From an uncultured Bacilli bacterium (lineage in GTDB: Bacteria > Bacillota_I > Bacilli_A > RF39 > UBA660): a DNA stretch of 35,989 nucleotides. The notes under the pieces were generated by a model. It ran no database searches and was not told the origin of the DNA. It saw nothing but the letters and a program-made list of their open reading frames with translations. The position numbers and the translations under genes were made by a program. The stretch lies in NCBI GenBank assembly GCA_947594595.1, contig CANQEE010000007.1, positions 1 to 35,989 of the forward strand. The letters run 5' to 3'. Of this stretch, positions 14,407 to 15,541 are shown in pieces (positions within the stretch are counted from its first letter, which is position 1; every line of letters begins with the position of its first letter).

Positions 14407-15541
14407 ATGAATATAGTTAATGCAAATAAAGTACGAGAGTCAAATTATGAGTTATTAAGAATATTTGCAATGTTTTTTATAGTGCTTCATCATTTGATAA
14501 CAAAAGGAGAATTGTTAACTTATACAGAAGAAACTACTTGCTTTTTTTTACGGAGCGTTTTATTATTTGGTCTTGTTCATGTAAATTGTTTTATGTTGAT
14601 TACAGGATATTATCAAAGTAAATCTAAATTTCATATGAAAAAGCTTCTTTCTCTACTTCTTCAAATAGGATTTTATAATTTTATTATCAATACAATTTTG
14701 TACTATACAGGTGTTGTAAAATATACAAATGTTGAGTATTTAAAATCAATTTCGTTTTATAATTTGTCTTCTTATTGGTATGTACAATGCTATTTCATTG
14801 TTTATCTTTTAAGTCCGTTTTTTAATAAATTTATTGATTTTATTGATAGGAAAACATTTAAAAAATTAGTTTTAGTGCTTCTTCTTTGTTTCGTAATTAT
14901 TCCGTTTGTTTCAAGAGGATTATTATACGATACGGGGGGGGTATACAGTCTTACAATATATAATGTTCTATTTTGTAGGTGCATATATCCGAAAATATGA
15001 ACTTAACAAAAACTTACTGAAGAACAGAAATGTATCTCAAAAGAGATTTTTTTACGTATGTTTATTTGTCGCATGTTGGATAATGAATCTTGCAGTTAAT
15101 TATTTTACTCTTTTTTTATTCCAACAAAATAGCAATATTTTAAATGACATTGCCTTTTTTCTAAGTTATAATCAATTTCATTACAATACACCATTTGCAG
15201 TTGTTCAATCTATAGCACTCTTTTTGCTATTTGGGACTTTTCAATTTAAAAATCGCTTTGTCAATCGAATTGCTTCTTTAATGTTAGGTGTCTATCTCAT
15301 ACATGAATTAAAGCCTTTAACAACAATTCTTTATTCTTGGACAGGTATTTATACAGGAGAAATGATTTATGGAAAAAGTATTATATTACATGTTTTTCTA
15401 ATTACTTTAAGTATTTTTATTGTTTCTGCAGTTATTGAATGGTTACGACAGTTTTTATTTAAGCTATGTTCCAAATTAAAATGGGTTCAAAAATTAGATT
15501 TAAAATGTACTCGTTGGTGTCATAATATGATGGATATATAG
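14407..15541 (+). pseudogene. Acyltransferase-3 family membrane protein, frame-broken at a G8 tract (candidate phase-OFF allele; G7 would give 377 aa)
   Basis: Frame-1 ORF 14407-15000 (NYELLRIFAMFFIVLHHLI..., catalytic-type His) and frame-2 ORF 14906-15541 (...GGYTVLQYIMFYFVGAYIRKYELNKN...) join seamlessly if one G of 14934-14941 is removed; RBS gggggagg. Confidence 0.88.
14934..14941 (+). repeat. G8 homopolymer inside the acyltransferase coding region
   Basis: Sequence gatac GGGGGGGG tatac, at the point where the two acyltransferase frames switch. Confidence 0.98.

What the first reader, a model, noticed from the sequence alone, without database searches (positions are those of the whole stretch)
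14407..15541. Candidate phase-variable surface-polysaccharide O-acyltransferase controlled by a G8 tract
Seen directly: the acyltransferase-3 gene is split between frame 1 (14407-15000) and frame 2 (14906-15541), and the switch lies at GGGGGGGG (14934-14941). Removing one G gives ...SRGLLYDTGGYTVLQYIMFYFVGAYIRKYELNKN..., continuous for 377 aa and matching the usual layout of this family (G-Y-x-L-x-x-x-x-x-Y-x-x-GAYIRKY). No other damage is visible. I saw no other G or C run this long in this AT-rich window. Poly-G slippage in surface-modification genes is a known phase-variation mechanism in other bacteria; here it would switch acylation of the polymer made by this operon (G8 OFF, G7 or G10 ON).
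Basis: partly seen in the sequence, partly recalled or inferred. Interest (0 to 1): 0.87.

Follow-up and report, generated by a model that had tools for sequence, protein, structure and literature searches.

The report
Poly-G on/off switch in acyltransferase gene
In an uncultured gut bacterium with a very small genome, a run of eight Gs very probably acts as a random on/off switch for an enzyme that decorates the cell's sugar coat, and the same kind of switch turns up again and again in related gut bacteria, in their acyltransferases and surface proteins.

Summary
A G8 tract at 14934-14941 breaks an otherwise intact acyltransferase-3 gene (PF01757). G7 or G10 gives 377/378 aa, and G8 stops the protein after 197 aa. 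The host genome (1.04 Mb, about 29-30% GC where read) has 23 runs of G8 or longer against about 1.2 expected. Twenty-two lie in promoter-like elements, mostly before surface proteins. The only one inside a gene is in the genome's only detected acyltransferase-3. Of 196 family genomes searched, 142 contain G8 or longer runs. I found ten more acyltransferase-3 genes with internal G8-G10 tracts, nine in this family and one in a Clostridia MAG; over all eleven, seven are out of frame and four in frame. For one, public metagenomes hold an intact 378-aa protein (92% identical) and an independent truncated 253-aa allele (98%), differing in frame at the tract. Near-identical promoter copies in one genome carry G8 or G9 while their flanks stay fixed. 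I had no reads and no second strain of the window's species, so variation at this exact locus is inferred. The mechanism is known in other bacteria; its family-wide scale in genome-reduced Bacilli appears undescribed.

The parts
14934..14941 (+). G8 tract, the proposed slippage switch (OFF at G8; ON at G7 or G10)
   Evidence: only G/C run >5 in the window; frames computed for G5-G11.
14407..15541 (+). Acyltransferase-3 (PF01757) gene interrupted at the tract; 377 aa in the G7 frame
   Evidence: full PF01757 match when read across; homologues of about 374 aa at up to 55% identity over 98% of the length; conserved columns kept on both sides.
14407..15000 (+). OFF product: 197-aa truncated protein lacking the C-terminal half
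   Evidence: 60.7 bits to profile positions 4-180 of 326; only copy in the 5.8-billion protein set is this contig.
14906..15541 (+). Out-of-frame downstream part; its TTG 'start' is probably only a stop-to-stop ORF artefact
   Evidence: no Pfam match on its own.
2290..14384 (+). Co-directional surface-polysaccharide cluster: UDP-sugar dehydrogenase 2290-3591, probable glycosyltransferase 3525-4766, ABC ATPase 4795-5538, ABC-2 permease 5531-6307, probable glycosyltransferases 6307-7161 and 7174-9357, DUF2142 9372-10769, GT2 10773-11489, DUF2304 11489-11848, probable glycosyltransferase 11832-12989, GFO/IDH/MocA oxidoreductase 12970-14031, EamA-like 14031-14384; the acyltransferase is the last gene
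   Evidence: Pfam for the dehydrogenase, ABC pair, DUF2142, GT2 10773, DUF2304, oxidoreductase and EamA; the other glycosyltransferase calls are read from the translations and were not scanned. That the genes form one operon is inference.
24877..27429 (+). mutS; a MutL-type gene lies on contig C24, so mismatch repair is not obviously lost
   Evidence: mutS from the translation (not scanned against a library); PF01119 hit at G000:C24:12929-13282.

Best explanation
The gene at 14407-15541 is a phase-variable contingency gene. Replication slippage in the G tract at 14934-14941 changes its length by one or a few G. At G7 or G10 the cell makes a complete membrane acyltransferase-3, which would O-acylate the polysaccharide made and exported by the upstream cluster. 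At G8 (the assembled state) or G9 translation stops soon after the tract and only an N-terminal half is made, so the polymer stays unmodified. Shown here: the gene, the tract, the frames, the intact flanks, the surplus of such tracts in genome and family, and the same arrangement in other acyltransferase-3 genes, one with both ON and OFF alleles in public data. Inferred: that this particular tract varies among living cells, that the truncated form is inactive, and that the substrate is this cluster's polymer.
For: Frames and intact domain. Closest homologues are full-length, 374 aa, and place the conserved Gly178 at the tract. Conserved columns are kept after the break: 30 of 31. Genome: 23 tracts of G8-G9 against about 1.2 expected, with no G7 run in the 180 kb read; the only tract inside a gene hits the only PF01757 gene detected. 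Family: G8 or longer in 142 of 196 genomes. Acyltransferase-3 genes with internal tracts: window OFF; L084, L124, L171, L214, L216 OFF; L162, L201, L315, L316 ON; Clostridia L278 OFF. In the first 144 tracts read, 4 of the 7 genic ones other than the window's are acyltransferase-3 (chance about 1e-9 to 3e-7). The L084 gene has a 92%-identical intact 378-aa allele (P0129) and an independent truncated 253-aa allele with the same frame-shifted tail (P0130). Promoter copies with identical flanks carry G8 or G9 in one genome.
Against: No reads and no second strain of this species: the public protein set holds only this contig's truncated form, and no allele of the same species was found. G8 is short for a fast switch. 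MutL, and by its translation MutS, are present. C-half identity to homologues is slightly below the between-homologue baseline (0.430 against 0.461), while the N-half equals it, which leaves room for slight relaxation. The ON/OFF pair in L084 relatives is at protein level and 92% identical, so it could be related species rather than one population.
Confidence: 0.87

Rival explanations
1. Assembly or sequencing error: the true tract is a fixed length and the gene is always intact.
For: Homopolymers are error-prone; this is one consensus of one metagenome assembly.
Against: Six of the ten further acyltransferase-3 genes with internal tracts are also out of frame, and one truncated allele is reproduced in an independent metagenome (P0130). 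Even if the assembled length were wrong, the surplus of G8-G9 tracts would remain.
Confidence: 0.05
2. Recently dead pseudogene, frozen at G8.
For: Only the broken form is known for this species; slightly lower C-half identity.
Against: No second lesion; 30 of 31 conserved columns kept downstream; the break lies exactly in the only long G run and in the gene class repeatedly hit in relatives, some of them in frame.
Confidence: 0.05
3. Programmed transcriptional slippage or ribosomal frameshifting at the G run makes some full-length enzyme from a fixed G8 template.
For: RNA polymerase and ribosomes can slip on runs; the frame break is at the run.
Against: Most tracts in this genome are in promoter-like elements and are not translated. 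Tracts in paralogous genes occur in both phases at DNA level. Recoding sites are usually conserved in position, whereas these are scattered along the protein.
Confidence: 0.03

Closest known systems
Haemophilus influenzae oafA and Neisseria meningitidis Lot/Lot3, phase-variable acyltransferase-3 O-acetyltransferases (PMC9558356, PMC3526765)
   Same: An acyltransferase-3 that modifies a surface glycan, with phase-variable expression; for oafA the H. influenzae Rd genome also showed a frameshifted copy.
   Different: The cited reference describes oafA as a gene with tetranucleotide repeats; those are Gram-negative pathogens modifying lipooligosaccharide. Here: mid-gene poly-G, a reduced-genome Bacilli gut bacterium, a glycan probably exported by an ABC-2 transporter.
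Bifidobacterium breve sortase-dependent pilus G-tract switch (PMC9187656)
   Same: Intragenic G tract in a Gram-positive gut commensal; replication slippage measured and modulated in mice; a surface structure is switched.
   Different: Pilus genes rather than a glycan-modifying enzyme; no promoter-tract family of the kind found here is mentioned in the abstract read.
Poly-G/poly-C contingency loci of Campylobacter and Neisseria (phasomes; PMC6321876, PMC5084427, PMC8355987)
   Same: Many G tracts per genome, in genes and between genes, with a bias to surface proteins and glycan genes (the bias from general knowledge).
   Different: An unrelated phylum; here most tracts of the host genome sit in repeated promoter-like elements before paralogous surface-protein genes.
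Promoter-spacer tracts such as Neisseria porA (poly-G) and Bordetella fim (poly-C) (from general knowledge; PMC1891110 for Bordetella tracts)
   Same: The tract lies within the promoter, so its length sets the spacing of elements.
   Different: Concerns the 22 other tracts of this genome, not the acyltransferase; expression was not measured.

Membership tests
Acyltransferase-3 (Pfam PF01757) | Match to the curated profile over its length | tested here: met
   87.8 bits (cut-off 31), profile positions 4-326, when read across the tract.
Acyltransferase-3 (Pfam PF01757) | Conserved residues of its closest homologues retained | tested here: met
   65 of 66 columns conserved in at least 90% of 39 homologues are kept; the one departure is I to V at 285.
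Acyltransferase-3 (Pfam PF01757) | Transfers an acyl group to a glycan | not testable with these tools
   Needs polymer chemistry.
Simple-sequence contingency locus (phase variation by slippage) | Homopolymer beyond chance whose length sets the reading frame | tested here: met
Simple-sequence contingency locus (phase variation by slippage) | Otherwise intact coding sequence on both sides | tested here: met
Simple-sequence contingency locus (phase variation by slippage) | Gene acts on the cell surface | tested here: met
   Acyltransferase-3 at the end of a polysaccharide/ABC-2 export cluster; by annotation only.
Simple-sequence contingency locus (phase variation by slippage) | Tract length differs among strains or cells | tested here: inconclusive
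   No second strain of this species. Intact and truncated alleles exist for the L084 acyltransferase of the same genus; G8 and G9 among paralogous promoters with identical flanks.
Simple-sequence contingency locus (phase variation by slippage) | Reversible switching at high frequency | not testable with these tools
   Needs reads or culture.

The most novel reading that the evidence does not exclude
A whole family of uncultured, genome-reduced gut Bacilli (closest named protein match Candidatus Onthousia; probably GTDB RF39/UBA660) relies on poly-G tracts as a genome-wide switching system in three layouts: tracts in promoters of surface-protein families, tracts just after the start codon of surface-protein families, and tracts inside acyltransferase-3 genes at sites that arose independently.
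Probability: 0.8. Interest if true: 0.75.

Novelty: new member of a known kind. Interest (0 to 1): 0.62.

Why it matters
Phase variation by poly-G slippage is best known from mucosal pathogens such as Neisseria and Campylobacter. Finding dense poly-G tract sets in a broad family of roughly 1-Mb gut Bacilli would mean that these uncultured commensals diversify their surface at random, which bears on phage, IgA and host contact, and it makes this testable from existing metagenome reads. The full-text library searched held no paper joining RF39 with phase variation. Repeated, independent capture of acyltransferase-3 genes by poly-G tracts also suggests that glycan acylation is a favoured target of switching.

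Tried and rejected
DNA search of the gene in the genus: no orthologue at DNA level. Frame-broken or partial homologues in G007, G010, G029, G088, G129 and G189: no run of G7 or longer in the loci fetched (G010 has C6), not counted. L148 and L219:2431 are promoter-type tracts, not genic. Considered and rejected: two-colour sequencing poly-G artefact at contig ends, because most contigs continue past the tract with conserved sequence and three tracts with their own flanks lie well inside contigs. Considered: contig ends at tracts prove length mixtures; rejected, because the repeated sequence after the tract explains the breaks equally well. No structure was predicted: the read-through uses a four-letter step that the folding tool does not accept, and I did not try it.

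Full report
Observation. A G8 tract at 14934-14941 separates an ATG ORF (14407-15000, 197 aa) from a second ORF (to 15541). G7 or G10 joins them into 377 or 378 aa; G6, G8 and G9 do not. Read across the tract, the protein is a complete Acyl_transf_3 (87.8 bits), and its best homologues are 370-376 aa at up to 55% identity over 98% of the length. The tract encodes the position of an invariant glycine (G178) and the variable residue before it. Both halves look maintained: 35 of 35 conserved columns before and 30 of 31 after the tract are kept, and third-position GC stays low in the joined frame. No other G or C run longer than 5 exists in the window.

Is it chance? A G8 in 36 kb of such DNA is only mildly unusual (5 of 100 shuffles). 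The genome decides. G000 has 23 tracts of G8 or G9 where a Markov estimate gives about 1.2 (Poisson tail about 2e-21). In the 180 kb read there are runs up to 6 and then only 8 and 9, with none of 7. Twenty-two tracts lie in promoter-like elements. Nineteen of those share a TATGCGAAGTTGGAATAAAGGCCT-G8/9-TAAA element (a few copies with single differences) and nearly all sit at contig ends, where the sequence after them is repeated. Two have TTGACT-G9 before secreted-protein genes, and one has TTGACA-N8-G9-TATATT before a TupA-like glycan gene. The tract in the window is the only one inside a gene, and that gene is the only PF01757 gene detected in the genome.

Relatives. All five genus mates have such tracts, and 142 of 196 family genomes have at least one, some with several dozen. 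Of the first 144 distinct tracts read, lengths were 8 (63), 9 (73), 10 (7) and 11 (1). One listed genic candidate (L148) has promoter-type flanks and was set aside. Of the remaining genic tracts, five of eight, including the window's, are in acyltransferase-3 genes. Leaving the window out, four of seven against a background of well under 1% of genes has a chance of about 1e-9 to 3e-7. Further cases came from directed looks and so are not part of that estimate. The full set is: window, L084, L124, L171, L214 and L216 out of frame; L162, L201, L315 and L316 in frame; and L278 from a Clostridia MAG out of frame. The tract lies anywhere from just after the start codon to about 86% of the length, and the eight compared share only about 23-34% identity in their longer local alignments, so the tracts most likely arose independently. 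Four of eleven in frame is what random phase (one third) would give.

Both states in nature. The two differ in frame exactly at the tract. I could not see their DNA, so tract lengths are inferred, and at 92% they may be sister species. For the window's own species only this contig is known.

Tract variability. Among promoter elements with identical flanks in one genome, lengths are G8 or G9. In G003 the GAATAAA-to-TATAAT distance without the tract is 15 in all 28 copies, reached as 2+13 or 3+12, while the tract itself is G8 in 14 and G9 in 14. The tract is the only elastic part of an otherwise rigidly spaced element. In two other genera (G141, G018) tracts sit just behind the start codon of surface-protein families, some with pilin-like N-termini. 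MutL is present, and mutS is in the window by its translation.

Function. The upstream genes encode a UDP-sugar dehydrogenase, an ABC-2 exporter pair, glycosyltransferases, DUF2142, DUF2304 and a GFO/IDH/MocA oxidoreductase, which suggests a glycan exported by an ABC transporter and modified outside the membrane. Acyltransferase-3 enzymes O-acylate such glycans (PMC9558356). The acyl group and acceptor were not determined.

Prior knowledge. Phase-variable acyltransferase-3 enzymes are known in Haemophilus influenzae (oafA, tetranucleotide repeats), Neisseria (Lot/Lot3) and Salmonella (oafB, epigenetic). A G-tract switch with measured slippage is known in Bifidobacterium breve (PMC9187656). The system is therefore a new member of a known kind, in an unexpected group and at an unexpected scale.

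Noticed in passing
L009-L028 (contig ends of G000): Nineteen copies of TATGCGAAGTTGGAATAAAGGCCT-G8/9-TAAATTRTAGTARAATGAACCTAGGAAACTAGGT (a few with single differences or cut short), followed where the contig continues by the start of a short conserved N-terminus (MEEERKKEIILVIGLLFLIG...). A repeated, possibly switchable promoter of a surface-protein family that also breaks the assembly.
   Followed up: partly
L054-L093 (G002, G003, G004): Species-specific versions of the promoter element in genus mates; in G003 the spacing without the tract is exactly 15 in 28 of 28 copies. The tract occupies about the -35 position, so an activator bound at GAATAAA is possible.
   Followed up: partly
L317-L322, L325-L327, L332, L333: G9-G10 tracts directly after the start codon of paralogous surface proteins (MKEKIRLGGG..., MYDKLKRVGGG...), some with type IV pilin-like N-termini; probable translational switches.
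   Followed up: partly
L315:1872 and L222:2101: Promoter-type tracts before an acyltransferase-3 gene (G10) and before a protein with internalin-like repeats (G9).
   Followed up: no
L013:2755-2763: G9 in the -35/-10 spacer (TTGACA-17-TATATT) of a TupA-like ATP-grasp gene in the host genome: a second glycan gene that may be switched.
   Followed up: no
L070:1795: G8 in frame in the middle of an FAD-dependent oxidoreductase (DAO) gene of G003; an unusual target for a surface switch.
   Followed up: no
L278:1015 and 1647: Clostridia MAG (Lapin-026__bin80) with two G9 tracts 0.6 kb apart, one in a hexapeptide-type acetyltransferase by its translation (in frame) and one at the 5' end of an acyltransferase-3 (out of frame).
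   Followed up: partly
L236:3993 and L254:3981: G7 runs at the ribosome-binding site of acyltransferase-3 genes, one in Candidatus Onthousia excrementipullorum; length change could tune translation.
   Followed up: no
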